In this document: positions 2,550-63,512 of the stretch, piece after piece
Position numbering within the stretch: the first letter of the stretch is position 1
Layout: the number at the start of each line of letters is the position of its first letter
From: Buxus sempervirens
Lineage: Eukaryota; Streptophyta; Magnoliopsida; Buxales; Buxaceae
Assembly (NCBI GenBank): GCA_947561395.2
Contig: OX387188.1
Span: 35,707,942-35,771,941 of the forward strand
Direction: 5' to 3'
DNA length: 64,000 nt
Program-made: the position numbers and the translations under genes
The notes under the pieces: model-generated
Told to the model about the DNA's origin: nothing
Databases searched by the model: none
The model's input: the letters and a program-made list of their open reading frames with translations, nothing else

Positions 2550-3476
2550 ATGCATCCCCATGCCCCCTCAACATCCCTTCTCTTCGTAGGGACCTTCACC
2601 TTCTTCTTTCTGGGCGTTCCAATATCTCTGGGAAACGGTTATCCACGATACACAGAGTGCAGTACTCGTGAGTTCAAATGCGGAGCTATAAAGAACGTCA
2701 CTTATCCTTTCTGGGGAGGTGATCGACCGGATTTCTGTGGTCTTCGGGAGTTCGAGCTTAGGTGCAAAGACAACTATACTGTGATCGAGATGAAGTCCGT
2801 CCCATACCGCGTTCTGTCAATGAATCAAATCAACCGGAGTCTGGTAATAGCTCGACTGGACTTGTGGGACGAACCTTGTACGGAGAATTATAGAAGTACC
2901 ACACTTGATCAGAACCTCTTCTCCCAACCCTCCAATACTGGCAAGGTGGCTTTGTTCTACAATTGCAGCTTCTTCGACTTCTCAACCAATCCGATTCCGG
3001 GCTTCACGCTTAAGAGCAAATTCAGCTGTCCCATCGGGAATGGTGAGCGGAGGGATGCTTACATCGTACTCGAAGACTACATCTCGACCTTTAGAGCACT
3101 TGTAGATGGGACGATATGCCAGAAGAACATCGAAGTCCCAGTTCGAGAACCGGGTCTTGACGACCTCAGGCGAAATCCCGAGATAACGGTTCTGAACAGA
3201 GCTCTGAAGGGGGGTTTCGAGGTGGTGTACAATGATGGCATCATCGATGCGTGTTTTCGTCGGTGTGATGCGCCGGATGGGAGCTGTGGACGCAACTTGA
3301 CATCGCAACAACCCGTTTGCTTTTGCAGAGATCAGCCTTACCCACAAAGCACATGTCCTGGTTCTTCCTCACGATCATCAGGTACAGGTACGCAAGCCTT
3401 TGTGCCCTTTGACTTGTTTGATCACACTATAAAAGGCGATATCAGAAACTGCAAGGCTGCGTTTGCTGCTCTCTAA
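2550..3476 (+). CDS. LRK10-like receptor ectodomain exon E1 (type A), intact, no adjacent kinase
   Basis: The exon encodes a signal peptide (MHPHAPSTSLLFVGTFTFFF), a GUB_WAK_bind domain (about residues 37-100, with [17 protein letters not shown] and FELRC) and a WAK_assoc domain ending in GFEVVY...SCGRNL...[10 protein letters not shown]. Many cysteines and N-glycosylation sequons indicate an apoplastic, wall-facing domain. The start at 2550 is chosen because this MHPH methionine and its hydrophobic run are shared with other type-A copies; the frame stays open upstream to 2487. A donor after base 3381 (CAG|GTACAG) leaves phase 1, matching the kinase exons; a second donor after 3387 has the same phase. 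Unspliced, the frame stops at 3476. The next kinase exons (K1) begin 8.3 kb away, beyond two broken ectodomains. The product could be a receptor spliced to K1 or a secreted ectodomain-only protein. Confidence 0.85.
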   Translation: MHPHAPSTSLLFVGTFTFFFLGVPISLGNGYPRYTECSTREFKCGAIKNVTYPFWGGDRPDFCGLREFELRCKDNYTVIEMKSVPYRVLSMNQINRSLVIARLDLWDEPCTENYRSTTLDQNLFSQPSNTGKVALFYNCSFFDFSTNPIPGFTLKSKFSCPIGNGERRDAYIVLEDYISTFRALVDGTICQKNIEVPVREPGLDDLRRNPEITVLNRALKGGFEVVYNDGIIDACFRRCDAPDGSCGRNLTSQQPVCFCRDQPYPQSTCPGSSSRSSGTGTQAFVPFDLFDHTIKGDIRNCKAAFAAL

Positions 3477-3779
3477 AAATTTATAATTCGTAGAAAAATA
3501 GGTTATAGCACGCCTTAAAATAGGGAAAAAAAATGGTAAAAATGAGTGGCTCACTCTGTTAACGGTTACCCGGTGTATGATGGTGCCACCCTCATCGTTA
3601 CATGCTCTTCATTTGAAGAGATATAGGTTTAATTTTAGTCTTTGAGTTTTAGCTCCTAAGTTTTAGGGTTTAGTTTTGGGTTTTGGATTGGGATTATGAT
3701 CTTGTTCTAAATGAGCTGAGGTACTTCGTTCCGTCTTTTACATTTTCCATGAGGAAAAACTTGAGACCACACCTATCTG

Positions 3780-5972: not shown

Positions 5973-6771
5973 ATGCACCCCCATCTTCCTCCATCATTCC
6001 TTCTTCTCATTTGGACCTTCACCTTCTTCTTGCTGGGCGTTCCAATATCATTGTGTGACGATGATCCACAATACCAGGCGTGCAGCCGTGAGTTCAAATG
6101 CGGGGACATAGCAGAAGTCTTCTATCCTTTCTGGGGAGGTCCTCGGCCCGATTACTGTGGCCTTCCGGGGTTCCAGCTCCGGTGCGAAGACAACTCTGCT
6201 GTGATCGATATGAATTCCGTCCCACATCGCGTTCTGTCAGTCAATCTATTCAACCGGAGTCTGGTAATAGCTCGATTGGACTTGTGGGGCGATCCTTGCC
6301 CGGAGAATTATATTAATACAACCCTCAATCAGAGCCCCTTCTCTAATTCCTCAAGTAATGGCAACTTAGCTCTGTTCTACAATTGTTCCGGCGTCTCAAC
6401 TTTTCCGATTCCGGGAATACCGTTTCCGAACAAATTTAGCTGTCCTACCGGTAATGGTGAACAGAGCGATGCTAATTAAGAGAACTTGCAGATGATTATG
6501 AATGCAAGAACATCATCGAAGTCCCAGTTCGTGATATGGGTCTTGAAACCCTGAAGCGTAACACAACGGAACTGCCCACAGTTTTGAGGGAGGGGGTTCG
6601 AGGTGGCCGGTGTACGATATTGAGGACACCATCAATCATTGTTTGGAGTGTGCGGCTTCAGAAGGTATCTGTTGACGGCGCAACTCGACATCGCAAGAAC
6701 CAGTTTGCTTCAGAAGATCTGGGTGGTTTAGTAAAATCACCCAGATACTTGTCCTGCTTCATCGAGACCAG
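5973..6771 (+). pseudogene. Type-B LRK10-like ectodomain pseudogene E2
   Basis: It begins with the type-B signal peptide [20 protein letters not shown] and a GUB_WAK_bind domain ([23 protein letters not shown]). It follows the intact type-B exon at 26592 closely up to GNGEQSDAN, where about 30 bases are missing near 6478 and a TAA results. Downstream sequence is still recognisable (IEVPVRDMGLETLK, then further frame slips) and runs to a donor-like CAG|GTACGTAA after 6771. The product, if made, would end after about 168 residues and lack WAK_assoc. Confidence 0.85.
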
Positions 6772-8945
6772 GTACGTAACTCTTCGTGCCCTTTTAATTT
6801 GGTTTGATCATATAGTAAAGATGGATAACTCAGAAGCTACAAGGCCGCGGTTGGTAGTTCTTTTAGATTTATTTGTTGGTATACCAAACACTAAGCCGGC
6901 TTATAATTCAAAAATCTAAAATCTAGATTCTGTTTTTCCATTTTAAATCCAATGTACCTAAAACATTGGATTTTAGAATTTAATTATCAATGGGAATCCC
7001 CAGATACATAAGATGGCTCATTCTAACCACATCAAAATATAGGACAAATATCTCCTCTAAATGTGGATCCGTGAGGGTGCTTATGTGTATATATATACAC
7101 TATTGGGTGCATACTTTAATTATGTAGAAACTAGTTTGGGATGGTTATTAAAGTGATATAATATTCTTCCAAAGTTTTATTTCAGCATGCTTAGGAGTGG
7201 GGCCTTTAGGATATAGTTTTAAAAATTAGTTTGTTCCTGGAGGGAAAAAAATGGTGGGAAAGGAAGAAGAGGAGGAGAATATCCATCGACTTGGTCAATT
7301 AGGCGGAACTCAGATTTCTCGGGCAATATGAACCGGTATTGCTCGAGTGATCGATGGTAATTCGTTTAAAAGTGTTCTTTGGGCCGAATTGGTTTGTTTG
7401 GCCCAACTCATACCAACTCCGGTGATACTGAGTTAGTACGCCCGATTCAGTAAAGATGTACTTCGTCGGTAGCCCAAGTATCTGAAATGCCTTTTTTTTC
7501 TTTTCTGTTTTTTTAATGACCCAAACCTGCTTGTTTCACCCATTCAGATTGGCTCTGTAGCCAATAGTGGGTTGCCATGTCAGCAATCCACTATCGACGT
7601 TTCCATCTCTCATTGATTTTGAAAAATCTTTTCCTTTCTTACTTTTTTTTTTTTAATTGCATCTTATTGCGACGTCACCTGCTATGGCATTGGTCATGAG
7701 ATGTTGTCATGTGAGGCATCTCAAGGCCACTCTTTTTCACATGGGGCCCACTTGAAACCTTTATCGCAATGTAAAAACAGTGAACGGGAGATGCTCCGCA
7801 TGGCAGCATTTTACGATCAAAGCAAAGGGCAATTCGATAAACATGGCAGAAAATTTCAAGCCGTGTTAGCTAGGATAGACAGGATGACATTTACTACAGA
7901 AAATTTCAAGCCGGCGCGCCGCTAATTTCGCCAATTTCGCTAACATTTTGCCAGAATTTTGCTAATTTTGGCAAAATTTTGGCACGCCGACAATTCGCTA
8001 ATTGTTGTATTTGTATAAAATTATGTTAATTATATATATATTTTTAACTTATTTATGTTTTTTTTTTCAAAAATGGCATTTCGGCGGCACGCCGCCAATT
8101 TCGCTAAAAAACCTGTTTCGGGCCATTTTGCCGAAATTTCGCCCCCATTTTGTTTCGGCTGCCTAGCGGCGCACCAGGTGGCACCGAAAATTCAGTCCTT
8201 GACTACAGTGTTTTACTACATTGATCATTGTTGTAGTTGTTGGATTCGTGTTTTTCATTGTTTTGCCTGGGATGCTCCACTTGAAAAACACAAACTGTGA
8301 GTTCACTTGAAAAACACATAATGAGATGTTCCACACGGTATCATTTCACGTTGTGACCTATGAAGTGAAATTCCTTAGTTTATAAGTAATTGTTAAACTC
8401 GTAAATTTACCAATAAACTATTACTGCATCGTTATTGTAGTTCGTCTCGAGGATTTGATTCCATAATTTATTTGTGAAAAAGTAAATTTTATGACAATTC
8501 ATTGCATGGTTGTGGCACCCATAGGGCAAAAAGTCTGTTTCACTCCTGTTTGACAGGAAATGTTTATTTAATTTGCTTAGTTGCAGACTCTCGGTCGGAA
8601 TCTACCGTTGGTTCTCAGCCAGTTATTGTGGCTTTTGCCACAGTTCTGACATTTTTTACCCAAGACATAGTCGATCTGGTTGATGTTATAGTGGCTCTGT
8701 TCTTAAGTTTCTTCATGTTTCAATGGTCTAAATGTATATTCCGACAAGTTGTTTGTGGTTCTGTACTTTTGGTTTGTGTTCATGTAGATACGTAGGCTTG
8801 GCTTTTATAATTAAAAAAAAGAAAGTCTGTTTGAGTCGTTGGTAAGGCTTCTAGAAAAAGCCGCTTTAGTCTTTTCTTTATTATTATTATTATTATTTTT
8901 TTTTGTCAACAAATACTCTATTCGTATATTTATCCGATCTCCTGA
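6772..8945. other. Spacer between E2 and E3
   Basis: No supported gene. Parts at 7802-7875 and 8210-8945 match 59205-59386 and 60080-60395 in unit 4, so this is the duplicated type-C upstream region. About 7876-8205 is extra sequence with G/C-rich motifs such as CGGCGGCACGCCGCC; a related motif recurs at 20985. I found no clean termini for it. Confidence 0.5.
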
Positions 8946-8953
8946 CTCCGGAC

Positions 8954-9598: not shown

Positions 9599-9819
9599 AT
9601 GGATCCCCAGATCCTCGTCTGGACCTTCACCTTATTCTATCTGGGCGTTTCAATATGTCTGGGAAACGTGATCCACATTACACAGCGTGCAAGACTAGTG
9701 TGTTCAAATGCGGAGACGTACAGAACGTCTATTATCCTTTCTAGGAAGGTGATCGACCGGAATACTGTGGTCTTCCGGAGTTTGGGCTTAGGTGCGAAGA
9801 CAACTATACTGTGATCGAC
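9599..9819 (+). pseudogene. Type-C LRK10-like ectodomain fragment E3
   Basis: The start [19 protein letters not shown] is the type-C signal peptide seen intact at 60514. A frame-changing deletion follows after GGGAAACG (about 9668), then a W-to-stop change in the YPFWGG motif (TTCTAGGAAGG near 9740). Similarity ends abruptly after GTGATCGAC at 9819, before the WAK_assoc domain. It cannot supply an ectodomain to K1. Confidence 0.88.
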
Positions 9820-11724: not shown

Positions 11725-12989
11725 GGAATACTACTTCGAGGAGAAAACTTATAATAGGTACTGTGCACCTCAAGTTGAATTGTTAATATTTCTTGATTAA
11801 TATTTTTTGCAATTGTGCTTTGAATAATCCTATGTTTGCATTGTCACCACCTCTTTCTTTAACTACAGGCTTATCATGTGCTGCTGCTGCTGAAGCTGCA
11901 ATTCTAGTAGCTTTTATTTTCTTGTTTTGCTACTTGAGAAGTTTTGGGAAAAAAGCAATTGAGAACAAAATTTTTGAGGCACTTTTGAGGAATTATGGAT
12001 CCATCACTCCAAAAAGATATAGTTATTCAGACATCAAGTTAATGACCAACTCCTTCAAGAAAAAACTAGGCCAAGGAGGCTACGGTAGTGTCTACAAAGG
12101 AAAACTACATGACGGTCATCCAGTGGCAGTAAAATTCTTGAAAGAGTTGAAAGGAAATGGAGAAGAATTTATCAATGAGGTTGTGAGTATTAGTAGGACT
12201 TCCCATGTTAATATTGTCACTCTTTTGGGTTTCTGTTTTGACGGCCAAAAAAGAGCTCTCATCTATGAGTTCATGCCTAATGGATCTTTGGACAAGTTCA
12301 TATACGATAAGAAACCATTGATGTCAGATTGTCGCCTTGGTTGGGAAGCACTACACCAAATTGCTACTGGCATTGCTCGAGGACTAGAGTACCTGCACCG
12401 CGGTTGCAATACGCGCATTTTGCATTTTGACATAAAGCCTCATAACATTCTTTTAGATGAAGAGTTCTGCCCAAAGATTTCTGATTTCGGCCTTGCTAAG
12501 CTATGCACTAGAAAAGAGAGTTCTATATCAATGTTGGATGCAAGAGGTACCGTGGGTTACATGGCCCCTGAGGTCTTTTCTAGACAGTTTGGTCATGTCT
12601 CACACAAATCTGATGTCTATAGCTATGGAATGATGGTTCTAGAAATGGTTGGGGTTAGAAATAACACTGATCAAGTTACGGGTAATACCAGTGACGAATA
12701 TTTTCCACATTGGATTTACAGGCATCTTAATCTATCTGGCCATCTAGCTCTGCATGGAATTTCTACTGAGAAGGATGACGAAATAGCAAGAAAGATGGTT
12801 TTAGTGGGTTTGTGGTGCATACAAACTAATCCATCAGATCGGCCATCGATCAGCAAAGTGCTGGAGATGTTGGAAGGAGACCTTGAATCCCTGCAAATCC
12901 CACCCAAGCCTTTCTTATCTTCTCCTCCAAGATCACCAGCAAGTTCACCCACCAGATCAACCTCCTCAAAACAGTCTACAATATTGTAA
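11725..12989 (+). CDS. LRK10-like receptor kinase exons K1 (non-RD kinase)
   Basis: Two exons are supported. 11725-11757 (33 bp) encodes the stalk [11 protein letters not shown], and 11869-12989 encodes the transmembrane segment ([17 protein letters not shown]) and a full Ser/Thr kinase domain: [12 protein letters not shown] glycine loop, VAVKFL lysine, [12 protein letters not shown] catalytic loop, ISDFGLAK and [11 protein letters not shown]. The HRD arginine is replaced by phenylalanine, making it a non-RD kinase as in many plant immune receptors. The ATG at 11793 lies in the intron and is not a credible start. The nearest ectodomain (E3) is dead; the only intact upstream one is E1 (donor 3381), which would give 661 aa. 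Differences from the other copies include [11 protein letters not shown] where they read [11 protein letters not shown]. Confidence 0.9.
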
Positions 12990-13096: not shown

Positions 13097-13101
13097 CAAA
13101 T
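13097..13101. repeat. Target-site duplication of young Copia, left
   Basis: CAAAT immediately before the 5' LTR; the identical CAAAT follows the 3' LTR at 18470-18474. The empty site is preserved after K3 (GCTCAAATTTCATCCG at 39712). Confidence 0.95.
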
Positions 13102-13729
13102 TGTTGTGGTGTCCTGTCTCATAATGGGACCAGGCCCACATGTCTCTCAACTTCAGAAACGGCAGGTGATTGAAGTTGAAGAGGAAAACTGCTGAAGCCT
13201 AAAAACGGCAGAAACTAAAGCAACTTAATGCATGTATGCATTAAGTTGTTGTTGTTGTTACGTGTGGTTATGCCTATATAAAGGGGCATAGTCTTGGTCA
13301 TTCGATATGATCCAGAATTCATAGTTTTGAAGCACTTTTCAGAGAGAGAGAGAGAGAAGTGTAAGACAAGAATAGAGTTATTCTTGTCGGAGAAGCTATA
13401 TGTGAAGTGATCATCCACAAGTGCAGATTGATTCCAGCACAGCTGAAGTTTGAAATTGAGGTACTATTACAGTCCTCATACGGTACGGGTTTCCACCTTT
13501 TGTTTGGTGAAGTTATTTTGTAATCCAAGAGATGCTTTCCTCTTGAAGTTGTATTCCCATTATTTCATAGTGGAAGTTTATCTGGACTAGATCCCGTGGT
13601 TTTTCCCTTCACATTGGAGGGTTTTCCACGTAAAAAATCCCGGTGTTATTTTCTGGTTCCGTTCTTCCGCATTTGTTTTATTCTCATAATTTACACAGAG
13701 AGGGAAAAAGTGAGTTATTTTTCCCAACA
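13102..13729 (+). repeat. 5' LTR of young Copia
   Basis: It contains a TATA box (TATATAAA at 13275-13282), a 10-bp-armed inverted repeat CTTAATGCAT-GT-ATGCATTAAG about 50 bp upstream of it, a GTT microsatellite and a GA-repeat downstream. These mark the promoter and start of the R region. Confidence 0.93.
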
Positions 13730-13731
13730 AG

Positions 13732-17824: not shown

Positions 17825-17827
17825 GAC

Positions 17828-17838: not shown

Positions 17839-17840
17839 TT

Positions 17841-23989: not shown

Positions 23990-24433
23990 ATGCATCCCCA
24001 TGTCCCCTCATCATCCCTTCTCTTCGTATGGACCTTCACCTTCTTTCTGGGCGTTCCAATATCTCTGGGAAACGGTTATCCACGACACACAGCGTGCAGT
24101 ACTCTTGAGTTCAAATGCGGAGAAGTAAAGAACGTCTCTTATCCTTTCTGGGGAGGTGATCGACCGGATTACTGTGGTCTTCGGGAGTTCGGGCTCAAGT
24201 GCAAAGACAATTACTATACTGTGATCGAGATGATGTCCGTCCAATACCGCGTTCTGTCAGTGAATCAAATCAACCGGAGTCTGGTAATAGCTCGACTGCA
24301 CTTGTGGGACGATGCTTGTCCGTATAATTATATGAATACGACCCTTGATCAGAACCTCTTCTCCCAATCCGTCCAATCCTCATCGTTACATGCTCTTCAT
24401 TTGAAGAGATATAGGTTTAATTTTGGTCTTTAA
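23990..24433 (+). pseudogene. Truncated type-A LRK10-like ectodomain E4
   Basis: Intact signal peptide and GUB_WAK_bind domain ([23 protein letters not shown]) up to DQNLFSQS. At about 24378 the coding sequence jumps into what in E1 is 3' flank (CATCGTTACATGCTCTTC, 3594 in unit 1). A deletion of roughly 640 bp removed the whole WAK_assoc domain and the donor site. The frame runs on into noncoding sequence for 18 residues and stops at 24433. No splice to K2 is possible at the conserved site. Confidence 0.85.
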
Positions 24434-26591: not shown

Positions 26592-29500
26592 ATGCACCCC
26601 CATCTTCCTCCATCATTCCTTCTCTTCCTTTGGACCTTCACCTTCTTCTTGCTGGGCGTTCGAATATCATTGTGTGACCATGATCCACATTACCAGGCGT
26701 GCAATCGTGATTTCGAATGCGGTGACATTAAAGAAATCTTTTATCCTTTCTGGGGAGGTCCTCGGCCCGATTACTGTGGCCTTCCGGGTTTCGAGCTCCG
26801 GTGCCAAGGCAATTATGCTGTGATCCATATGAAGTCCGTCCCACATCGCGTTGTGTCAATCAATCAAACCAACTGGAGTATGGTAATAGCTCGATTGGAC
26901 TTGTGGGACGATCCTTGCACGGAGAATTATATTAATACAACCTTCAATCAGAGCCCCTTCTCTAATTCCTCAAGTAATGGCAAGTTAGCTCTGTTCTACA
27001 ATTGTTCCGGAACGATTCCGGAAATGATTCCGGGAATACCGTTTCCGAACAAACTTAGCTGTCCTACCGGTAACGGTGAACAGAGCGATGCTAATTACTT
27101 TGCGTACGGCGAATACATCTCGATCTTTAGAGATGCTGCAGATGATTATGAATGCAAGCACACGATCGAAGTCCCAGTTCGTAATATGGGTCTTGAAACC
27201 CTGAAGCGTGCAGAGGAGCTGCCCACAGTTTTGAGGGGGGGCTTCGAGGTGGTGTACGGTATTGAGGCCACCATCAATCATTGTTTGGCGTGTATGGCTT
27301 TAGAAGGTAGGTGTGGACGGCGCAACTCGACATCGCAAGAACCAGTTTGCTTTTGCAGAGACAGGCCTTACTCGGATACTTGTCCTGCACCAGGTACGTA
27401 ACTCTTCGTGCCCCTTTTATTTGGTTTGATCATACAGTGAAGATGGATAACTCAGAAGCTACAAGGCCGCGTTTCGTAGTTCTTTTAGATTTATTTGTTG
27501 AAAACCAGTACATAGCACGAGCCTTTGTGCCCTTTTAGTTTGATTGATCACATCGTAAAAATGGGTAACAGAAATTCCAACGCTCAGGATCTGGCACAGC
27601 ATGACCCGCAGCCGATTCCTTAGCAGGCTGACCAGTGCCGTGCTGTGTTATGGGCCAGGCTATTCTGGCCCATTTTGTAAAGAATTATTTAACTAAAATC
27701 AAATTCTAAAGATAACTTTTATTCGTAATATTTTTTTATATAAATATAAATTTCAAAAAATGTGAAAATAATAATATAACTTTTATATGTAACCTTGTAT
27801 TTATACAAACTCCGTTACATTTCATACTACTAGGGGGTTGCATGCGCGTAGAAAACGTGGGCCCACTTAGATAAACAGTTTGGTAGTTAATTTAAAATAG
27901 TGAGGGATTGTTTTGTTTGAGGAGGGTAATGTTTAGAAAAAGAAAAGGAGGGCAAGAATCTGGAGGGAATATTCTCCCCTCTTCTCTTTATAGATAGTAT
28001 AGATATCATGTCTTTAAAAATTGACTTTTATCCGTAACTTTGTAATTATATAAATTTCAAAAAATGTGAATAAAAATATAACTTTGTCTTTCTTAACCTT
28101 GTATTTATACAAACTTTGTTACATTTCAAAAAATGTGAATAAAACAACCCAATTTTAAATAGATCGCATGCCATTGTAATTGGTTAGTTACATTGATGTG
28201 GCATAACAACCTTATAAAATGTAGTAAAGCTGAGGGGCGATTTGGGCATAGATTCAAGGCCTAAATCTCACCTATTGGTTTTATATTAGTATAAATATAT
28301 CATTATAGTATGAACGCATCCTAACTGGCACCCACTCATACGTCTTTCATCTGCAGTTTAATAAGAAAAAAAAAAAAGGAAAGAAAACTTGCAATATTTC
28401 ACATTGTTATTACAAAAGTTGAACTAATTTTGAATTCCTAAAGCCTACAATTCGTATAGAATCAGTAAGCTTTGTGCTTTCTGTTCCATTTTCAACCTAT
28501 CATTCAAGCAAACACAATATTCCGCCATCTTCGTCATTAATATGCTATAATATGGTCCACCATTCAGCCACTCATACTAAAAGCCGATTTTAATGCAACG
28601 GTGATGGTAGATGGTGATCCTAACTTTGCTCCCACCAAAATATCAAAAGAATCAATTTCTTCTTTACTTAAATATTTTACTTGTGAGCTATTTATGTACA
28701 TTATTTGATGATGCACTACCAGTTGCAAGTTGTTTCCTTCTCCTAAAACTTATTACATTCCAAGGCAACCATCTTGACATTGGTACATGTGCTTGGCTGC
28801 TTTATCTAGCAGCATGTTCATCAAAAGAGGGTGTTCAAGAGTTATTTAATTTTGTCAACATCTTTGGTGCAAAAAATATATTCAATTTTTTCTATTGATT
28901 GCCTCTAATAAACATTCTAATCACCCTAATTTAATTCTAGGATTCATTATGGTTGCTAAACAATATAAATGAGGTAATTCTTCCAAATATTTTAAAAATT
29001 TTGCTTCCATTATTGGATATATACTAACACAAATTGGTTTATTTCTCCTACATTCAAAAATATAATTTATATTATATAAATATATTTAAAATGCATAGAA
29101 ATTTTGGATAATAGGCAATGTTGAATTTTTTTTTGCTTTACAAAAATGTGTAAACATATCTTTCAGAGCATTTCATTCACTTATGGTTTATTTCTCTTAC
29201 ATTCAAAAATATAATTTATATTATATAAATATATTTAAAATGCATAGCAATGTTGGATAATAGGCAATGTTGAATTTTTTTGCTTTACAAAAATGTGTAA
29301 ACATATCTTTCAGAGCATTTCATTCACTTATGGTTCTATGCTTGTAAAGAAAGGAAGGACCAGTATATCCAGACAAAATTAGGGGCTACACCTCATGCTT
29401 GCAGGAGCATCTCAATGTTAACTCATCCAGCACCTGTTATCTGAACAAATGTCACAATTCAACACGAATTGGACAGCCAATTATCTGTTTACTTTGTTAG

Positions 29501-31199
29501 CTGCTGAAAACTCTTTCCACATTGACATGACTGTGAGAAGTGTTCCAAGTGTCACATGGATGAATGTCTATGTGCTAATGTCATAGCTGGGAACTTCAGC
29601 TGTGTCTACTACAAAAGGGGTATAGAAACAAAAAATAAGCCTGTTAGTCCTCTCTATCATTCCTTCTTTTCTCTCCTCAAGCTAAATTATTCTTACTGAG
29701 TCAGTGTCACTTCCTGCTGTCTTATGTCATTCTTCAACCTCGGTTCAGCCTTTTTATTTAGATATTAAATACAAATGCACACACAGAATATAAATGGAAG
29801 AACCGATATATTTATATGAGCATCGCTTGTGGTCTTTCATGTTAAATTCCTATAGAGGATTGATTATTTCATGATTTTTATTGCAGGGAGTACTACTCGG
29901 AAAAAAAAACTTATAATAGGTATTGTGCACCTCAAGTTGAATTGTTAATATTTCTCAATTAATATTTTGTGCAATTTTGCTTTGAATAATCCTATGTTTG
30001 CATTGTCACCACCTCTTTTTTTAACTACAGGCTTCTTAGGTGCTGCTGGAGCTGCAATTATAGTCGCTTTTATTTTCTTGTTTCACTACTTGAGAAGTTA
30101 TGGGAAAAAAGCAATGCAGAACAAAATTTTCTTGTTTCACTACTTGAGAAGTTATGGGAAAAAAGCAATGCAGAACAAAAATGTTGAGGAATTTTTAAGG
30201 AATTATGGATCTGTCAGTCCAAAAAGATATAGTTATTCAGACATCAAGTCAATGACCAATTCCTTTAAGGAAAAACTAGGCCAAGGAGGCTATGGTAGTG
30301 TCTACAAAGGAAAATTACGTGACGGTTGTCCAGTGGCAGTGAAGTTCTTGAAAGAGTTGAAAGGAAATGGAGAAGAATTTGTCAATGAGGTTGCAAGTAT
30401 TAGTAGGACTTCCCATGTTAATATTGTCAATCTTTTGGGTTTCTATTTTGACGGCCAAAAAAGAGCTCTCATCTATGAGTTCATGCCTAATGGATCTTTG
30501 GAGAAGTTCATATATGATAAGAAACCATTGACGTCAGATCGTTGCCTTGGTTGGGAAGCACTACACCAAATTGCTACTGGCATTGCTCGAGGACTAGAGT
30601 ACCTACACCGCGGTTGCAATACGCGCATTTTGCATTTCGACATAAAGCCTCATAACATTCTTTTAGACGAAGAGTTCTGCCCAAAGATTTCTGATTTCGG
30701 CCTTGCTAAGCTATGCACTAGAAAAGAGAGTGCTATATCAATGTTGGCTGCAAGAGGTACTGTTGGTTACATTGCCCCTGAGGTCTTTTCTAGACAGTTT
30801 GGTCATGTCTCACACAAATCTGATGTCTATAGCTATGGAATGATGGTTCTAGAAATGGTTGGGGTTAGAAATAACACTGGTCAAGCTACGGGTAATACCA
30901 GTGATGAATATTTTCCACATTGGATTTACAGGCATATTAATCTATCCGGCCATCTAGCTCTGCACGGAATTTCTACTGAGAAGGATGAGGAAATTGCAAG
31001 AAAGATGGTTTTAGTGGGTTTGTGGTGCATACAAACTAATCCATCAGATCGGCCATCGATCAGCAAAGTGCTGGAGATGTTGGAAGGAGACGTTGAATCC
31101 CTGCAAATCCCACCCAAGCCTTTCTTATCTTCTCCTCCAAGATCACCAGCAAGTTCACCCGCCAGATCAACCTCATCAAAACAGTCAACAATATTGTAA
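26592..31199 (+). CDS. Complete LRK10-like receptor kinase gene E5-K2
   Basis: Three exons: 26592-27393, 29887-29919 and 30031-31199, giving 667 aa. The start is the conserved type-B ATG of [16 protein letters not shown]; the frame is open further upstream. The first exon encodes signal peptide, GUB_WAK_bind ([22 protein letters not shown]) and WAK_assoc (GFEVVYGIE...CGRRNS...VCFCRDRPY). The 33-bp exon encodes [11 protein letters not shown], and the last exon the transmembrane segment and non-RD kinase ([44 protein letters not shown]). Phases (1-1) agree at all joins. It should be a plasma-membrane receptor with a wall-facing domain; ligand unknown. Odd points: a 54-bp tandem duplication in the transmembrane region (30072-30179), and FYFDG where other copies have FCFDG. 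Intron 1 is 2.5 kb and holds a Helitron and a tandem duplication. Confidence 0.88.
27830..28003 (-). mobile_element. Small non-autonomous Helitron in intron 1 of E5-K2
   Basis: On the minus strand it starts TCTATACTATCTATAAAGAG and ends in CCCCCTAG; 174 bp, flanked by A and T without target duplication. It is related to 4920-5087 throughout (GGGGGAATATTC and GTGGGCCCAC landmarks shared). A 5'-side part also survives near 10108 in the K1 intron. Confidence 0.75.
29036..29331. repeat. Direct tandem duplication (about 148 bp x 2) in intron 1 of E5-K2
   Basis: Units 29036-29184 and 29185-29331 both run from GGTTTATTTCT(C/T)(C/T)TACATTC to ATTCACTTATGG with few differences. The K1 region has one copy (about 11050-11200). 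Confidence 0.85.
30072..30179 (+). repeat. 54-bp perfect tandem duplication in the K2 transmembrane exon
   Basis: [18 protein letters not shown] is encoded twice in a row (30072-30125, 30126-30179). This puts the inner half of the membrane segment and the basic stop-transfer sequence into the protein a second time. K1, K3 and K4 have one copy. The frame is kept. Confidence 0.95.
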
Positions 31200-36143: not shown

Positions 36144-39100
36144 ATGCACCCCCATCTTCCCCCATCATCCCTTCTTTTCACAGGGATCTTCACCTTCTTC
36201 TTTCTGGGCGTTCCAATAGCCTTGGGAGACAATGATGCATACGCGGCGTGCAGTCGTGTGTTCAAATGCGGAGACATACAGAACGTCTCTTATCCTTTCT
36301 GGGGAGGTGATCGACCGGCTTACTGTGGTCATCCCCAGTTCGGGCTCCGGTGCAACCAAGGCAACTATACCGTGATCGACATGATGTCTGTCACGTACCG
36401 CGTTCTGTCAGTGAATCAAATCAACCGGAGTCTGGTAATAGCTCGACCGGACTTGTGGGACGATCCTTGTACGTATAATTATATTAATACCACACTTGAT
36501 CAGAGCCTCTTCTCCCAATCCTCCAATACTGGCAAGGTGGCTTTGTTCTACAATTGCAGCTCCTGCAACTACTCAACCAATCTGATTCCGGGCGTATCGC
36601 TTAAGAACATATTTATCTGTCCCATCGGGAATGGTGAGGGGAGCGATGCTTGCTTCGTATACGACGAGTACATCTCGCCCTTTAGAGAAGTTGCAGATGG
36701 GACATGCCAGAAGAACATCGAAGTCCCAGTTCGAGAACCGGGTCGTGTCGACCTCAGGCGAAATCCCGATATAAGGGTTCTGCAGAGAGTTTTGAAGGAG
36801 GGTTTTGAGGTGGTCTACACTGAAGCCATCACCGATGCGTGTGTTAATTGTGGGGTTTCCGGTGGGAGCTGTGGACGCAACTTGGAATCTCAACAACCCG
36901 TTTGCTTTTGCAGAGATCTGCCTTACCCACAAACGTGTTCTGCTTCTTCCTCAGGATCATCAGGTACGCAAGCCTTTGTGCCCTCTAATTTGTTTGATCA
37001 CAATATTAAAATCGATTACTGAAGCTGCAAGGCTGCGTTTGGTAATTATTTATTTACTTTTTGCAACATTTCTCTATGATACATTGCTAGTGTGTATACC
37101 ATATCCATCTCCTCTGTCTGGAATGTTGAATCAAATGGGCTAATGCCAAATTGGTGTGCACAGCAGTTCAATGCCAATTTAAGAAATAAGGATACAAGTT
37201 CATCAAACTGATTAAGCAACATTTAAGAAAAAATTTGGGTACCTTTGGTGCACGGATGGAAATCTTCTGCAGCCAAATTGTGAGGTAGAGACCTTCATCC
37301 GTGAAATTGGGGGCAATCATCCAAGTTGAGGAAAAGAAAATGTTTTGATTTGGATTCTATTATCACTGGCATTTATCTATTATGATAATCATCCACCATC
37401 CATTACCTGTACTAAAAGCTGATCCCTTGCAACTGTGAATGGTGAAACCATTGTTAGATCACGTACCATGGCAACAATCACAGGATAATGACCCTGATTT
37501 TGCTTTTACCAGGCCAGAATGTCAAAATAATCCATTTCTTATTTACTTAAAAATTCTAATTGGGTGCTATCTATGTAGGTCATCAATTATGATGATGCAC
37601 TACCAGTTGTTAATTGTTTTCCCCTTCTAAAACTTTTTAAATTCCAAGGCAATCAAAAAAGGGGTGTTCAAGTGTCGTTTAGTTTTGTCAATATCTGTTG
37701 TGCACTAAATGTTCATTTTTTTTATTACATTTATTGCATCTAAAAACATTCTAATCCTATTGATTTAATTCTAGGATCTATTATGGTTGTGCACTAAATA
37801 TAAAGAGGTAATTCTTCTCAATATTTTAAAATTTTGCTTCCGTTGCTATATAGATACTAGCACAGACTGGTTTCTTTCTATTACGTTCAACAATACAACT
37901 TATATTCTATAATATATTCAAAATGCATGGGAATGTTGGATAATTAATCCCAAATAGAACTTTATTCCGTTGCTACCTTAGTTTATATTCGAGTTAAATT
38001 TTTGTAGAGAACTGATAATTTTATGATTTTTACTGTAGGAAGGAGATGGATAAGAAGGCTTAATTTTTCAATATTTTTCAATACAACTTATTTTATGATT
38101 TTTACCTCAAGTTAAATCGTTGGTATTTTTTATTTAATATTTTTCAATCATGATAAATAATCTATACCATTCTTACAATTGTGCTTTGAATTTTCCCTTG
38201 TGTCCTTAGCCACCACGTCTTTCTTTAACTACAGGCCTTCTTTGTGGTGCTTCTGGAACTGCAATTACAGTAGCTTTTATTATTTTATTCCGCTGCTTGA
38301 GGAAAGGAAAAATGGAGAACAAAAATGTTGAGGAATTTTTGAGGAATTATGGATCCATCACTCCAAGAAGATATAATTATTCAGACATCAAGTTAATGAC
38401 CAATTCCTTTAAGGAAAAACTAGGCCAAGGAGGCTATGGAAGTGTCTACAAAGGAAAATTACATGACGGTTGTCTAGTGGCAGTTAAGTTCTTGAAAGAG
38501 TTGAAAGGAAATGGAGAAGAATTTATCAATGAGGTTGCAAGTATTAGTAAGACTTCCCATGTTAATATTGTCACTCTTTCGGGTTTCTGTTTTGACGGCC
38601 AAAAAAGAGCTCTCATCTATGAGTTCATGCCTAATGGATCTTTGGAGAAGTTCATATACGATAAGAAACCATTGACATCAGATCATCTCCTTGGTTGGAA
38701 AACACTACACCAAATTGCTACTGGCATTGCTCGAGGACTAGAGTACCTGCATCGTGGTTGCAACACACGCATTTTGCATTTTGACATAAAGCCTCATAAC
38801 ATTCTTTTAGACGAAGAGTTCTCTCCAAAGATTTCTGATTTTGGCCTTGCTAAGCTATGCACTAGAAAAGAGAGTGCTATATCAATGTTGGCTGCAAGAG
38901 GTACCGTCGGTTACATTGCCCCTGAGGTCTTTTCTAGACAGTTTGGTCATGTCTCACACAAATCTGATGTCTATAGCTATGGAATGATGGTTCTAGAAAT
39001 GGTTGGGGTTAGAAATAAGGCTGATCAAGTTACAGGTAATACCAGTGACGAATATTTTCCATATTGGATTTACAGGCATCTTAATCTATCCGGCCATCTA

Positions 39101-39343
39101 GCTCTGCATGGAATTTCTACTGAGAAGGATGACGAAATTGCAAGAAAGATGGTTTTAGTGGGTTTGTGGTGCATACAAACTAATCCATCAGATCGGCCAT
39201 CGATCAGCAAAGTGCTGGAGATGTTGGAAGGAGACCTTGAATCCCTGAAAATCCCACCCAAGCCTTTCTTGTCTTCTCCTCCAAGATCACCAGCAAGTTC
39301 ACCCACCAGATCGACCTCATCAAAACAGTCTACAATATTGTAA
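36144..39343 (+). CDS. LRK10-like receptor kinase gene E7-K3 (exon 2 lost)
   Basis: Exon 1 (36144-36963) encodes a signal peptide ([20 protein letters not shown]), GUB_WAK_bind ([23 protein letters not shown]) and WAK_assoc (GFEVVYTEA...SCGRNL...VCFCRDLPYP), with donor CAG|GTACGC. The kinase exon (38235-39343) starts GLLCGASGTAITVAFIILFR and has [29 protein letters not shown] and GTVGYIAPE. The position of the usual 33-bp exon (about 38040-38072) is mutated: no donor and an in-frame TAA. Because that exon is phase 1-1, direct joining of exon 1 to the kinase exon keeps frame and gives 642 aa. The leader resembles type B while the body resembles types A/C, so exon 1 looks mosaic. Other oddities: SGFCFDG for LGFCFDG, and FSPKISDF for FCPKISDF. 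Confidence 0.82.
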
Positions 39344-46177: not shown

Positions 46178-47298
46178 ATGGATATTCAAAACTTCTTCTC
46201 TTCATTGATGAATACCATTCTTCTCACGGCCTTGATACAAAAAGCTCTATCAGCAAATCATCGATTTGAAACTTGTGTGCCTCGAAACTGCAGTAATGGC
46301 ATTACCTTAAGCTATCCTTTTTGGGTTTCTCGTGAACAAGAATCCTACTGTGGTTATTGGAGATCACCTGTAATGAGAAGGAGCCTGTGATTGAGATATC
46401 TAACGACGAATACATTATTAGAGATATCTTTTATTTGAACAACTCAGTTTTAGTGGCCAACTCCAGGGCCATCAGAGATGTCTGTCCCACTCCCATACAT
46501 AATATCAGCCTTGCTAACACTCCCTTTACTTATGGCTTCTACCATGCGTATCTTCACTTCTTCTACAATTGTACCACAGCTCCTCTCAAGTACCTTACTT
46601 ACCCAATTTCTTGTGCTAGCAATTCGAACCATCAGTCTTTTGCCGCATTTATTGTTGGGAAAAACAACTCACTTTTTCCCTCTCTGTGTAAATTATGAGA
46701 ATAAAACAAATGCAGAAAAATAGAAACCAGAAAAATAACACCGAGATTTTTTACATGGAAAACCCTCCAATGTGAAGAGAAAACCCACGGGACCTAGTCC
46801 AGATAAACTTTCACTATGAAATAATGGGAATACAACTTCAAGAGGAAAGCATATCTTGGATTACAGAATAACTTCACCAAATAAAAGGTGGAAACCCGTA
46901 CCATATGAGGACTGTAATAGTACCTCAATGTCAAACTTCAGCTGTGCTGGAATCAATCTGCACTTGTGGATGATCACTTCACATATAGCTTCTCTGACAA
47001 GAATAACTCTATTCTTGTCTTACACTTCTCTCTCTCTCTGAAAGTGCTTCAAAACTATGAATTCTGGATCATATAGAATGACTAAGATTATGCCCCTTCA
47101 TATAGGCATAACCACACGTAACAACAACAACAACAAAAAAACGCATACATGCGTTAAGTTGCTTTAGTTTCTGCCGTTTTGAGGCTTCAGCAGTTTTTCC
47201 TCTTCAACTTCAATCACCTGCTGTTTCTGAAGTTGAGAGATATGTGGGCCTGGTCCCATTATGAGACAGGACACCACAACAAAACTCCCCCTCCTGTC

Positions 47299-53710: not shown

Positions 53711-54721
53711 AATTTAACACAGGGAACAAAAGTCTGACAACTTGTGTTCAAGGATAAGTACACCGACTTGGTTGCTTATATTGATACTGTATCTGTACCT
53801 TGTACACGAACTCTGGGCTCCGATACCACTTGTTGGGAAAAACAACTCACTTTTTCCCTCTGTGTAAATTATGAGAATAAAACAAATGCGGAAAAACAGA
53901 AACCAAAAAAATAACACCGAGATTTTTTACATGGAAAACCCTCCAATGTGAAGAGAAAACCCACGGGACCTAGTCCATATAAACTTCCACTATGAAATAA
54001 TGGGAATACAACTTCAAGAGGAAAGCATCTCTTGGATTACAGAATAACTTCACCAAATAAAAGGTGGAAACCCGTACCGTATGAGGACTGTAATACCTCA
54101 ATGTCAAACTTCAGCTGTGCTGGAATCAATCTGCACTTGTGGATGATCACTTCACATATAGCTTCTCTGACAAGAATAACTCTATTCTTGTCTTACACTT
54201 CTCTCTCTCTCTGAAAGTGCTTCAAAACTATGAATTCTGGATCATATAGAATGACTAAGATTATGCCCCTTTATATAGGCATAACTACACGTAACAACAA
54301 CAACAACAACAACAAAAAATGCATACATGCGTTAAGTTGCTTTAGTTTCTGCCGTTTTGAGGCTTCAGCAGTTTTTCCTCTTCAACTTCAATCACCTGCC
54401 GTTTCTGAAGTTGAGAGATATGTGGGCCTGGTCCCATTATGAGACAGGACACCACCACATTTATCGCTAAGGAAACCGCAAAGCCTTTGATGCAAGAGAA
54501 GAGATGTCAGTCTGCGGTTACCGTGCCAATGGTCTTGGGTGGAAATGATTTTGAAAACGTATCGCGAATGGATTACATGGATTCTTTGAGGAGAGATCTT
54601 CTTTTGGAATGGGATGCAGGTAATTGCATTGAATGCGAGGTAAGCGGAGGGGTATGTGGATTTGATAACAACCAATTCCGGTGCTTTTGCGGCGATCAAA
54701 CCAATAGCGAGTACTGCTATG

Positions 54722-56648: not shown

Positions 56649-57527
56649 ATGCATCCCCATGCCCCCTCATCATCCCTTCTCTTCGTAGGGACCTTCACCT
56701 TATTCTTTCTGGGCGTTTCAATATCTCTGGGAAACGGTTATCCACATCACACAGCGTGCAAGACTAGTGTGTTCAAATGCGGAGACATACAGAACGTCTC
56801 TTATCCTTTCTGGGGAGTTGATCGACCGGCTTACTGTGGTCTTCGGGAGTTCGAGCTCCGGTGCAAAGACAACTATACTGTCATCGAGATGATGTCCGTC
56901 CCATACCGCGTTCTGTCAATGAATCTAATCAAACGGAGTCTAGTAATAGCTCGACTGGATTTGTGGGAGGAACCTTGTACGGAGATTTATAGAAGTACAA
57001 CCCTGAATCAGAGCCTCTTCTCCAAATCCTCCAATACAGGCAAGGTGGCTTTGTTCTACAATTGCAGCTTCCTCGACTTCTCAACCAATCCGATTCCGGG
57101 CGTATCGCTTAAGAACAAATTTACCTGTCCCATCGGGAATGGTGAGCGGAGGGATGCTTACTTCGTACCCGAAGACTACATCTGGGGCTCTAGAGAACCT
57201 GCAGATGGGATATGCCAGAAGAACATCGAAGTCCCAGTTGGAGAACCGGGTCGTGACGACCTCAGGCGAAATCCCGATATAACGGTTCTGAACAGAGCTC
57301 TGAAGGGGGGTTTCGAGGTGGTGTACAATGATGCCGTCATCGATGCGTGTGTTCGTCGGTGTGGTGCTTCCGATGGGAGCTGTGGACGCAACTTGACATC
57401 ACAACAACCCGTTTGCTTTTGCAGAGATCAGCCTTACCCACAAAGTACATGTCCTGGTTCTTCCTCACGATCACCAGGAACAGGTACGCAAGCCTTTGTG
57501 CCCTTTGACTTGTTTGATCATACTTAA
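56649..57527 (+). CDS. LRK10-like receptor ectodomain exon E9 (type A), intact, no adjacent kinase
   Basis: Signal peptide (MHPHAPSSSLLFVGTFTLFF), GUB_WAK_bind ([23 protein letters not shown]) and WAK_assoc (GFEVVYNDA...SCGRNL...[10 protein letters not shown]) are all open. The first of the two tandem donors seen in E1 is mutated (CCAGGAACAG), but the second, ACAG|GTACGC after 57483, remains and leaves phase 1. Unspliced, the frame stops at 57527. The next kinase exons (K4, 62254) lie 4.8 kb away beyond the intact E10 ectodomain, to which K4 clearly belongs. E9 may be an alternative first exon for K4, an ectodomain-only protein, or a recent orphan. One change from consensus: YPFWGV for YPFWGG. 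Confidence 0.83.
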   Translation: MHPHAPSSSLLFVGTFTLFFLGVSISLGNGYPHHTACKTSVFKCGDIQNVSYPFWGVDRPAYCGLREFELRCKDNYTVIEMMSVPYRVLSMNLIKRSLVIARLDLWEEPCTEIYRSTTLNQSLFSKSSNTGKVALFYNCSFLDFSTNPIPGVSLKNKFTCPIGNGERRDAYFVPEDYIWGSREPADGICQKNIEVPVGEPGRDDLRRNPDITVLNRALKGGFEVVYNDAVIDACVRRCGASDGSCGRNLTSQQPVCFCRDQPYPQSTCPGSSSRSPGTGTQAFVPFDLFDHT

Positions 57528-60079: not shown

Positions 60080-60513
60080 CTGTGACCTATGAAGTGAAAT
60101 TCTTTAGTTTATAAGTAATTATTAAACTTGTAAATTTACCAATTAACTATTACTGCGTCGTTATTACAGTCTTACAGTCCGTCGTCGAGGATTTTGATTC
60201 CATAATTTATTAGTAAATAAGTAAATTTTATGACAAACCATTGCATGGTTGTGGCATCCGTAGGGCAGAAAGTCTCTTTCACTCCTTCATAAGACCAGAC
60301 TTCTAGAAAAAGCCGCTTTAGTCTTCCTTTATTATTATTACCTTTTTTCTTTAGTCAACAGATACTCTATTTGTATATTTATCCGAATCTCCTGACTCCT
60401 CTTCCTCTTCGTTTCGCCTCGTTGAAACATTCCACGCTTCCTTCGTATATACCAGTTGTTGTTCAAATTCCCAACAATTCTCTCTTCTCTGAGTTTCTTT
60501 CAATTCCCCAAAA

Positions 60514-63512
60514 ATGGATCCCCAGATCCTCGTCTGGACCTTCACCTTATTCTTTCTGGGCGTTCCAGTATCTCTGGGAAACGGTTATCCACCACACACA
60601 GCGTGTAGTACTCGTGTGTTCAAATGCGGAGACATACAGAACGTCACTTATCCTTTCTGGGGAGGTGATCGACCGGCTTACTGTGGTCTTCGGGGGTTCG
60701 AGCTCCGGTGCAAAGACAACTATACTGTCATCGAGTTAAGTTCCATCACATACCGCGTTCTGTCGGTGAATCAATTCAACCGAAGTCTGGTAATAGCTCG
60801 ACTGGACTTGTGGGAAAATCCTTGTACGGAGAATTTTATTGATACCACCCTGAATGAAAGCCTCTTCTCCCAATCCTCTCATACTGGCAAGGTGGCTTTG
60901 TTCTACGATTGCGGCTCCTTGGACTCAGTCAATCCGATTCCGGGCATATCGCTTAAGAACAAATTTAGCTGTCCCATCGGGAATGGTGAGCGGAGGGATG
61001 CCTACTTCGTACCCGAAGACTACATCTCGAGCTTTAAAGCAATTGTAGATGGGACGATATGCCAGAAGAGCATCGAAGTCCCAGTTCGAGAACCGGGTCG
61101 TGGCGAGCTCAGGCGAAATCCCGAGATGACGGTTCTGCAGAAAGCTTTGAAGGGGGGTTTCGAGGTGGTGTACACTGATGCCGTCATCGATGCGTGTTTT
61201 CGTCAGTGTGGTGCTCCCGATGGCATTGGGAGCTGTGGACGCAACTTGACAACGCAACAACCCGTTTGCTTTTGCAGAGATCAGCCTTACCCACAAAGTA
61301 CATGTCCTGCTTCTTCCTTACGATCATCAGTTACAGGTACGCGAGCCTTTGTGCCCTTTGACTGGTTTGATCTCACTGTAAAAAGCGATAACAGTAACTG
61401 CAAGGCTGCGTTTGCTGCTATCTTAAAATTTATAATTGGTAGAAAAAGAGGTTATGGCACGCCATAGCGGGGAAAAAAGTTTGCAAAGATGAGTGGCTCA
61501 CTGTTACCGGTTACCCGGTGCATGGTGGTGCCACCATCGTAGGCTCATGCTCTTCATTTGAAGAGATATAGGTTTAATTTTAGAGTCTTTAAGTATTAGC
61601 TCCTAAGTTTTAAGCGTAGTTTCGGGTTTTGGATTTGGATTATGATCTTGTTTTTTGAAATCAAACTTCGAATTACTGCTTTTTAAATTCTAAAATCCTT
61701 TTTGTGGATATTTGATTTTAGGATTTATTTTTATTTGTATAAAATCTAGAATCTTACTTTGTTGACCATTACCTTGATTATTAACACAGATTTTGTACTT
61801 TGTGTGTTAACGCAAGACACACAAAGTAGAATCTTACCTTGTGCACCTAAAAACTGTGGTAATGGCATTAGTATAAGATACCCTTTTTGGCTTTCTCATG
61901 AACAAGAATCCTACTGTGGTTATCCGGAATTGGAGATCACCAGTGATGGGAGCTGTGGACGCCAGTGTTTGACGCGAGCTAAACTATTCTTACTGAGTCT
62001 ATTAGTCCTCTCTATCCTTCCTTTTTTCTCTCCTCAAGCTAAACTATATATTCTTACTGAGTCAGTGTCACTTCCTGCTGTCTTATGTCATTCCTCAACC
62101 TCGGTTCAGCCTTTTTTTTTTAGATATTAAATACAAATGCACACACACATTATAAATGGAAGAACCGATATATTTAGATGAGCATTGCTTGTGGCCTTTA
62201 TGCTCCTGTTAAATTCTTGTAGAGGATTGATTATTTCATGATTTTTACTGCAGGGAGTACTACTTTGACAAGAAAACTTATAATAGGTACTGTGCACCTC
62301 AAGTTCAATTGTTAATATTTCTTGATTAATATTTTGTGCAATTGTGCTTTGAATAATCCTATGTTTGCATTGTCACCACCTCTTTCTTTAACTACAGGCT
62401 TCTCAAGTGCTGCTGGAGCCGCAATTATAGTAGCTTTTATTTTCTTGTTTCGCTACTTGAGAAGTTTTGGGAAAAAAGCAATTGAGAACAAAAATGTTGA
62501 GGAACTTTTGAGGAATTATGGATCCATCACTCCAAAAAGATATAGTTATTCAGACATCAAGTTAATGACCAAGTCCTTTAAGAAAAAATTAGGCCAAGGA
62601 GGCTACGGTAGCGTCTACAAAGGAAAATTACATGACGGTCATCCAGTGGCAGTAAAATTCTTGAAAGAGTTGAAAGGAAATGGAGAAGAATTTATCAATG
62701 AGGTTGTGAGTATTAGTAGGACTTCCCATGTTAATATTGTCACCCTTTTGGGTTTTTGTTTTGACGGCCAAAAAAGAGCTCTCATCTATGAGTTCATGCC
62801 TAATGTATCTTTGGACAAGTTTATATACGATAAGAAACCATTGACGTCAGATCGTCGCCTTGGTTGGGAAACACTACACCAAATTGCTACTGGCATTGCT
62901 CGAGGACTAGAGTACCTGCACCGCGGTTGCAATACGCGCATTTTGCATTTTGACATAAAGCCTCAAAACATTCTTTTAGATGAAGAGTTATGCCCGAAGA
63001 TTTCTGATTTCGGCCTAGCGAAGCTATGCACTAGAAAGGAGAGTGCTATATCAATGTTGGTTGCAAGAGGTACCGTGGGTTACATTGCCCCTGAGGTCTT
63101 TTCTAGACAATTTGGTTATGTCTCACACAAATCTGATGTATATAGCTATGGAATGATGGTTCTAGAAATGGCTGGGGTTAGAAATAACACTGATCAAGTT
63201 ACGGGTAATACCAGTGACGAATATTTTCCACATTGGATTTACAGGCATCTTAATCTATCTGGCCATCTAGCTCTGCATGGAATTTCTACTGAGAAGGATG
63301 ACAAAATTGCGAGAAAGATGGTTTTAGTGGGTTTGTGGTGCATACAAACTAATCCATCAGATCGGCCATCTATCAGCAAAGTGCTGGAGATGTTGGAAGG
63401 AGACCTTGAATCCCTGCAAATCCCGCCCAAGCCTTTCTTATCTTCTCCTCCAAGATCACCAGCAAGTTCACCCACCAGATCAACCACATCAAAACAGTCT
63501 ACAATATTGTAA
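60514..63512 (+). CDS. Complete LRK10-like receptor kinase gene E10-K4
   Basis: Exons 60514-61336, 62254-62286 and 62398-63512 give 656 aa. Exon 1 encodes the type-C signal peptide [26 protein letters not shown]_bind ([23 protein letters not shown]) and WAK_assoc (GFEVVYTDA...SCGRNL...[10 protein letters not shown]). The first tandem donor is lost (CAGTTACAG), so the donor is ACAG|GTACGC after 61336. The 33-bp exon encodes [11 protein letters not shown]. The last exon encodes the membrane segment [14 protein letters not shown] and a full non-RD kinase ([44 protein letters not shown]). Substitutions relative to the other kinases: PQN for PHN in the catalytic loop, NVSLDKF for NGSLDKF/NGSLEKF, MLVARG for MLAARG. 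Expected role: plasma-membrane receptor sensing a wall or apoplastic ligand. Confidence 0.9.
61780..61965 (+). pseudogene. E8-type ectodomain fragment in intron 1 of E10-K4
   Basis: Encodes [20 protein letters not shown] and [15 protein letters not shown], the GUB_WAK_bind motif of the E8 subtype. It is then joined directly to GATGGGAGCTGTGGACGCC, a snippet of the type-A/C WAK_assoc domain, before kinase-intron sequence begins. It has no start or complete domain: a recombination relic. Confidence 0.75.

What the first reader, a model, noticed from the sequence alone, without database searches (positions are those of the whole stretch)
2550..63512. Modular receptor array: several splice-compatible ectodomain exons per kinase module
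Seen: ectodomain exons of types A, B and C all end at a donor leaving phase 1, and all kinase modules begin in the matching phase. Shared spacers give the order A-(D relic)-B-C-kinase in unit 1, A-(D)-B-kinase in unit 2 and A-(D)-[B deleted]-C-kinase in unit 4. At least one intact ectodomain survives per kinase, but it is a different type each time (A for K1, B for K2 and K3, C and A for K4). Inference: either alternative ectodomain exons share one kinase, or units are remodelled by recombination so that any ectodomain can become the partner.
Basis: partly seen in the sequence, partly recalled or inferred. Interest (0 to 1): 0.75.

Follow-up and report, generated by a model that had tools for sequence, protein, structure and literature searches.

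The report
Plant receptor array swapping sensor exons
A stretch of plant chromosome carries a tandem array of cell-surface receptor genes in which outer sensor exons, their promoters and the inner kinase parts have been mixed and matched by recombination, and some kinases still have two or more intact sensor exons in front of them that could share them by alternative splicing.

Summary
The window is part of an LRK10L-type receptor-kinase cluster in a 676-Mb plant genome. The splice geometry is real: all 17 intact ectodomain exons found in 260 contiguous kb end at a phase-1 GT donor, matching the kinase modules. Corrections: the K3 ectodomain has a B-type promoter but an A/C-type body, and only one of the window's four units (A4+C4 before K4) keeps more than one intact ectodomain. 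Elsewhere five precede one kinase and two another, and three precede one on another chromosome.
Remodelling is strongly supported: three promoter/body chimaera types (p 6e-13 to 2e-18), one 4-kb kinase module behind two different ectodomains, and an exon 8.5% diverged between flanks 1.2% diverged.
Sharing of one kinase is not shown in this plant. It is supported by a Rhododendron isoform pair (last 386 residues identical, N-terminal parts about 67% identical), by two-promoter AtLRK10L1 and by constraint on a distal exon. Verdict: a multi-first-exon receptor array; RNA junctions are the missing test.

The parts
2550..3387 (+). A1: intact A-type ectodomain first exon (signal peptide, GUB_WAK_bind, WAK_assoc), phase-1 donor at 3387 (3381 also possible)
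5973..6829 (+). B1: broken B-type ectodomain exon (frame-shifting indels)
9599..9818 (+). C1: truncated C-type ectodomain relic
11725..11757 (+). K1 mini-exon, 33 nt
11869..12989 (+). K1 transmembrane + kinase exon
23990..24380 (+). A2: truncated A-type ectodomain relic
26592..27393 (+). B2: intact B-type ectodomain first exon, phase-1 donor; 8.5% diverged from e239 while flanks differ by 1.2%
29887..29919 (+). K2 mini-exon, 33 nt
30031..31199 (+). K2 transmembrane + kinase exon
33571..34575 (+). broken D-type ectodomain exon
36144..36963 (+). E3: intact ectodomain first exon, B-type upstream region on an A/C-type body, phase-1 donor
38235..39343 (+). K3 transmembrane + kinase exon; mini-exon upstream has lost its donor
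46189..46647 (+). 5' part of an F1-type ectodomain relic, cut off from its 3' part by a Copia element
54499..54696 (+). 3' part of an F1-type ectodomain relic
56649..57483 (+). A4: intact distal A-type ectodomain first exon of unit 4, phase-1 donor
60514..61336 (+). C4: intact proximal C-type ectodomain first exon of unit 4, phase-1 donor
61838..61949 (+). F1-type ectodomain fragment (97% identical) between C4 and K4
62254..62286 (+). K4 mini-exon, 33 nt
62398..63512 (+). K4 transmembrane + kinase exon, candidate to be shared by A4 and C4

Best explanation
This is a multi-first-exon receptor array of the LRK10L family. Each ectodomain exon is a self-contained cassette: own upstream region (presumed promoter), start codon and signal peptide, a GUB_WAK_bind/WAK_assoc sensor, and a phase-1 donor. 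Each kinase module is a constant cassette: phase-1 acceptor, usually an in-frame mini-exon, and one TM+kinase exon. A transcript started at any ectodomain promoter runs through downstream ectodomain exons, which as first exons need no acceptor, and splices to the next kinase module (inferred). Unequal crossing-over, gene conversion and module duplication keep recombining promoter, sensor and kinase (shown from sequence), and many cassettes die (shown). Where two or more intact cassettes precede one kinase (A4 and C4 before K4 in the window; F1 and F2 before K10, and five before Y1, outside it) they are predicted to share it as alternative first exons (not shown). Ectodomains evolve at dN/dS around 1 or somewhat below and kinases mostly at 0.25-0.5 (shown), which fits a recognition receptor kept diverse outside and constant inside (inferred).
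For: Structure: 5 of 5 window models open; 17 of 17 intact ectodomain exons phase 1; mini-exon of 30 or 33 nt in 12 of 14 LRK10L2 modules. Recurrence: of 16 kinase modules in 260 kb, 3 have two or more intact ectodomains in front, 8 one, 5 none; a C6 sample has three before one kinase. No kinase remnant in 8 spacers by blastn; tblastn gave only weak hits, E 0.19-1. Constraint on the distal F1 exon: 17 of 769 differences against 52 of 610 in the F1-F2 spacer, p=9e-8. Recombination: E3, e13, e55 chimaeras, p=6e-13, 9e-15, 2e-18; Y module 95.7% identical over 4 kb behind e20 and behind e55; B exon island, p=1e-14. Comparative: Rhododendron isoform X2/X3 with identical last 386 residues; 9 of 196 retrieved proteins with two or more ectodomains and one kinase; AtLRK10L1 two transcripts from two promoters.
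Against: No RNA data. In the window only 1 of 4 units has two intact ectodomains; in 260 kb 3 of 16. Nearest-neighbour ectodomain and kinase types mostly go together (A/B/C with K1, K2, K4, K13; E3-type with K3, K7, K9, K14; F with K6, K10), as whole-unit duplication predicts. dN/dS near 1 in the A/C group gives no proof of purifying selection there, and A1/A4 exons diverge no less than their flanks. The isoform status of the Rhododendron pair rests on the source's naming.
Confidence: 0.68

Rival explanations
1. Ordinary birth-and-death of tandem genes: one ectodomain per kinase is the working gene, and extra ectodomain exons are transient leftovers of unequal crossing-over that are not spliced to the kinase.
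For: 8 of 16 kinase modules have exactly one intact ectodomain and 5 have none; broken exons are common (B1, D, A2, C1); ectodomain and kinase types mostly co-occur.
Against: Distal F1 kept at 2.2% divergence beside an 8.5% spacer; five intact exons before Y1 and three on C6; Rhododendron isoform pair.
Confidence: 0.27
2. Distal ectodomain exons make secreted, kinase-less receptor-like proteins by reading through the donor (soluble co-receptors or decoys).
For: Reading frames run on past the donor: about 30 codons in A1, 14 in A4, 43 in C4.
Against: Tail length is not conserved (about 2 codons in B2, 19 in E3) and donors are well matched in all but the F2-type exons.
Confidence: 0.12
3. The exon-limited divergence of B-type exons comes from a local mutational process (exon-targeted hypermutation) and not from old lineages kept by selection amid conversion.
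For: Synonymous sites diverge too (dS 0.13; 8 of 96 fourfold sites) and most private changes (64 of 98) are not found in the A/C exons compared.
Against: E3/e249 and A1/A4 exons diverge about as much as their flanks, so it is not general to ectodomain exons. 34 of 98 private changes match an A/C allele where 18 to 22 are expected by chance, pointing to some templated exchange.
Confidence: 0.07

Closest known systems
LRK10L2-type receptor kinases (LEAF RUST 10 DISEASE-RESISTANCE LOCUS RECEPTOR-LIKE PROTEIN KINASE-like 2.x)
   Same: Same domains and order; the listed full-length database homologues carry this name or a generic kinase name.
   Different: They are annotated mostly as one ectodomain and one kinase (102 of 196 retrieved proteins); 9 of 196 have two or more ectodomains and one kinase.
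Arabidopsis AtLRK10L1 (At1g18390), transcripts L1.1 and L1.2
   Same: One kinase gene, two promoters, two transcripts (PMC10573068 and PMC12479429, passages); a mini-exon subject to alternative splicing is the subject of Shin et al. 2015, seen only as a title in reference lists.
   Different: Two transcripts there; here up to five candidate first exons and a locus-wide array. Whether the two Arabidopsis ectodomains differ was not read.
Cucumber CsLRK10L1/CsLRK10L2 cluster (PMC7649820, sections 20 and 29)
   Same: Duplicated ectodomain first exon joined to a different kinase; the authors call it domain reshuffling.
   Different: Two genes; no multi-ectodomain unit and no promoter/body chimaeras described in the sections read.
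Arabidopsis OAK receptor-kinase cluster (PMC3136440, passages)
   Same: Hypervariable tandem receptor-kinase array with conversion and discordant promoter and ectodomain histories.
   Different: Malectin-like ectodomains; one ectodomain per kinase in the passages read.
Vertebrate Pcdh and UGT1 variable-first-exon clusters (PMC1885805, passages)
   Same: Tandem variable first exons with signal peptide and recognition domain, followed by constant exons; conversion is frequent in Pcdh.
   Different: Vertebrate; more than a dozen variable exons in Pcdh alpha/gamma and about a dozen in UGT1. Here at most five intact, and the constant modules are themselves duplicated and swapped; splicing not shown.

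Membership tests
LRK10L2-type receptor-like kinase | GUB_WAK_bind and WAK_assoc ectodomain | tested here: met
   Both Pfam domains above cut-off in A1, B2, E3, A4, C4
LRK10L2-type receptor-like kinase | TM segment and Ser/Thr kinase in the 3' exon | tested here: met
   K1 by Pfam; 14 modules by a kinase profile, K8 and K11 in pieces; TM judged by eye from sequence
Variable-first-exon (Pcdh/UGT1-like) cluster | Tandem homologous first exons, each with its own start codon and compatible donor | tested here: met
   17 intact exons, 17 of 17 phase 1
Variable-first-exon (Pcdh/UGT1-like) cluster | Several intact first exons before one set of constant exons | tested here: inconclusive
   Met for 3 of 16 kinase modules in 260 kb and for a C6 sample; not met for window units 1, 2 and 3
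Variable-first-exon (Pcdh/UGT1-like) cluster | Own promoter for each first exon | tested here: inconclusive
   Distinct conserved upstream types A, B and C; promoter activity not testable
Variable-first-exon (Pcdh/UGT1-like) cluster | mRNAs joining each variable exon to the same constant exons | not testable with these tools
   No RNA of this plant; one annotated isoform pair in Rhododendron

The most novel reading that the evidence does not exclude
Plants have a protocadherin-like recognition-receptor architecture: up to five alternative ectodomain first exons (C10), and at least three on another chromosome (C6), each with its own promoter, are spliced to one shared kinase. Promoter, sensor and kinase cassettes are continually reshuffled between units while selection preserves sensor diversity against homogenising conversion.
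Probability: 0.42. Interest if true: 0.85.

Novelty: new variant of a known kind. Interest (0 to 1): 0.62.

Why it matters
Receptor-kinase surveys usually count one ectodomain per kinase gene. If ectodomain exons share kinases, then gene counts, orthology calls and single-gene knock-outs in LRK10L clusters are misread, and fused or truncated gene models in databases have a biological cause. The locus is also a testable case of how a tandem array keeps sensor diversity while recombination homogenises the rest: the exon-limited island at B2/e239 makes a clear prediction for population data.

Tried and rejected
Typing E3 as B: rejected on body sequence. Lost kinases between consecutive ectodomains: no blastn match in 8 spacers, tblastn only weak hits at E 0.19-1. 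A single donor for the B2 or e239 exon: none seen among the other B-type exons of the 260 kb. Conversion from A/C exons as the main source of B differences: only partly, 34 of 98 private changes match an A/C allele, 18 (random sites) to 22 (same sites) expected. Soluble-decoy reading: tails not conserved. Three further pairs with near-identical kinase ends but ectodomains under 75% identical (P0064/P0071, P0107/P0115, P0131/P0137) were rejected as isoforms because their kinase ends differ at a few residues. Run test: 9 of 15 pairs reached p of 0.01 or less, uncorrected, and the test includes the upstream stretch where promoter types differ, so it does not point to conversion in each pair. Whole-genome counts of kinases and WAK_assoc exons were not obtained because the search machine was busy. 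The species was not identified: among the 120 listed hits, those covering at least 90% of the query are at most 53% identical. Paper searches listed no plant receptor array described in title or abstract start as several ectodomain first exons sharing one kinase; only open-licence PMC papers are covered, the lists are capped, and I read passages or sections of six papers only. Dropped before counts: broken B1 from the indel count (2 of 6 exon indels multiples of three); e183, e199 and e234 from the 17 intact exons because their 5' ends or start codons are lost.
Full report
What the region is. The window is G000:C10:35707942-35771941 of a 676-Mb plant genome with 111 GUB_WAK_bind matches (a lower bound), many of them in clusters on contigs C10, C6, C11 and C9. 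Ectodomain exons carry GUB_WAK_bind and WAK_assoc, and the 3' exon scanned (K1) carries a kinase. A joined model (C4-K4) matches full-length plant proteins, many named LRK10L 2.x.

Gene anatomy. Exon 1 holds the signal peptide and the whole ectodomain and ends at a phase-1 donor. A 33-nt mini-exon follows, then one TM+kinase exon. A mini-exon of 30 or 33 nt is present in 12 of 14 LRK10L2 modules of the 260 kb; K3 has lost its donor and K11 is disturbed. As its length is a multiple of three, K3 keeps the frame when the mini-exon is skipped. Five window models of 642-667 aa are open throughout. Shared phase is a family property and says nothing by itself about exon sharing.

Census. In 260 contiguous kb of C10 (one 200-N gap) I mapped ectodomain and kinase segments with profiles built from homologues. 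Seventeen ectodomain exons are intact from start codon to donor and 17 of 17 are phase 1. The first listing of donors considered phase-1 sites only; scanning every GT near the chosen site gave the best score in phase 1 in 17 of 17 and at the chosen site in 16 of 17. There are 14 LRK10L2-type kinase modules (K8 and K11 broken) and 2 modules of another kinase type, Y1 and Y2, whose kinases I take to be LRK10L1-type (recalled, not scanned). Counting intact ectodomains in front of each of the 16: five for Y1, two each for K4 and K10, one for eight modules, none for five. On C6 a 20-kb sample has three ectodomain exons with start codon and a phase-1 donor, plus a more divergent ectodomain frame, in front of one kinase of the Y kind. 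So several intact ectodomains per kinase is real and recurrent but is the minority state, and in the window it holds for unit 4 only.

Are the extra exons alive? The distal F1 exon differs by 2.2% between the Y1 and K10 units while the F1-F2 spacer differs by 8.5% (17 of 769 against 52 of 610, p=9e-8). Indels between intact exons are multiples of three in 22 of 22 cases, in flanking stretches in 20 of 104; this is partly circular because intact exons were chosen, pairs overlap, and for the F pair the flanks include the neighbouring F exon. dN/dS is 0.51-1.71 in 28 A/C pairs, 0.66-0.81 in 3 B pairs, 0.45 in the F1 pair, 0.59-0.80 in 3 F2 pairs, and 0.25-0.49 in 37 of 38 kinase pairs with dS under 0.6, with one at 0.71. 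Blastn found no kinase module sequence between consecutive ectodomains in 8 spacers, while the K4 control was found; tblastn gave only weak hits.

Recombination. The 120 bp upstream of A, B and C exons are only about 49-71% identical between types and 82-96% within types, so they mark promoter types. E3 (and e188, e249) has a B-type upstream region on an A/C body; e13 has a C-type upstream region on a B body; e55 has a C-type upstream region on an A1-like body. Tests at sites where the two chosen parents differ give p=6e-13, 9e-15 and 2e-18 for E3, e13 and e55 (parents were chosen after seeing the comparison). A1 and e55 share a run of 83 polymorphic sites, p=0.0005, the floor of 2000 permutations. 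Kinase modules move too: a 4-kb module, 95.7% identical, lies behind e20 (F2) in one place and behind e55 in another. Kinases pair K1 with K4 (support 0.99) and K2 with K13 (1.00), whereas the A1 exon groups with e55 and e234, the latter from the K13 unit (support 0.80 and lower); sequence downstream of A1 is likewise closer to e234 than to A4.

An island of divergence. B2 and e239 sit in sister units (K2/K13). Their flanks differ by 1.2% (13 of 1067) but the exon by 8.5% (67 of 787, p=1e-14), and fourfold sites by 8 of 96 (p=1e-4). Dense differences run from 32 bases after the start codon to the donor. B1 against B2 is similar: exon 10.9%, upstream 1.5%, though 107 bases downstream differ by 5.6%. 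E3/e249 and A1/A4 do not show it. My preferred reading is that conversion or crossing-over homogenises units while selection keeps old ectodomain lineages; no donor was found among the B exons held.

Evidence for sharing from other plants. Two proteins of a Rhododendron (name cut off in the listing), P0079 (isoform X2) and P0047 (isoform X3), bear the same product name and the same longest-contig length. They share their last 386 residues exactly, starting about six residues before the likely mini-exon, and are 67% identical in the N-terminal part. That they are isoforms of one gene rests on the source's naming. Nine of 196 retrieved proteins, a top-hit sample and not a random one, have two or more ectodomains and one kinase, as gene finders would produce at such loci. 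Papers state that AtLRK10L1 makes two transcripts from two promoters (PMC10573068 and PMC12479429, passages). Cucumber CsLRK10L1/2 show an ectodomain exon duplicated and joined to another kinase (PMC7649820, sections 20 and 29).

Verdict. The arrangement would work like a vertebrate variable-first-exon cluster (PMC1885805, passages), but membership in that kind is not established because transcripts were not available.

Noticed in passing
13101-18469: Copia-type retrotransposon with one long open frame and two LTRs 99.84% identical over 630 bases, inserted about 110 bases past the K1 stop codon: a young insertion.
   Followed up: partly
46652-54462: Second copy of the same Copia element on the other strand, broken into pieces, separating the two parts of an F1-type ectodomain relic.
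   Followed up: partly
42610-45212: Reverse-transcriptase-like and RNase H-like frames on the minus strand, looking like a LINE-type element (judged by eye).
   Followed up: no
30031-30200: K2 has a duplicated juxtamembrane stretch ([17 protein letters not shown] twice); its sister K13 shows the same extra sequence in the alignment.
   Followed up: no
C10:35838392 (outside the window): K12, an open kinase module with no ectodomain segment between it and the preceding broken kinase K11.
   Followed up: no
L041-L042 (C6:43472001-43492000): Separate cluster on another chromosome with three ectodomain exons and a divergent fourth frame before one kinase.
   Followed up: partly
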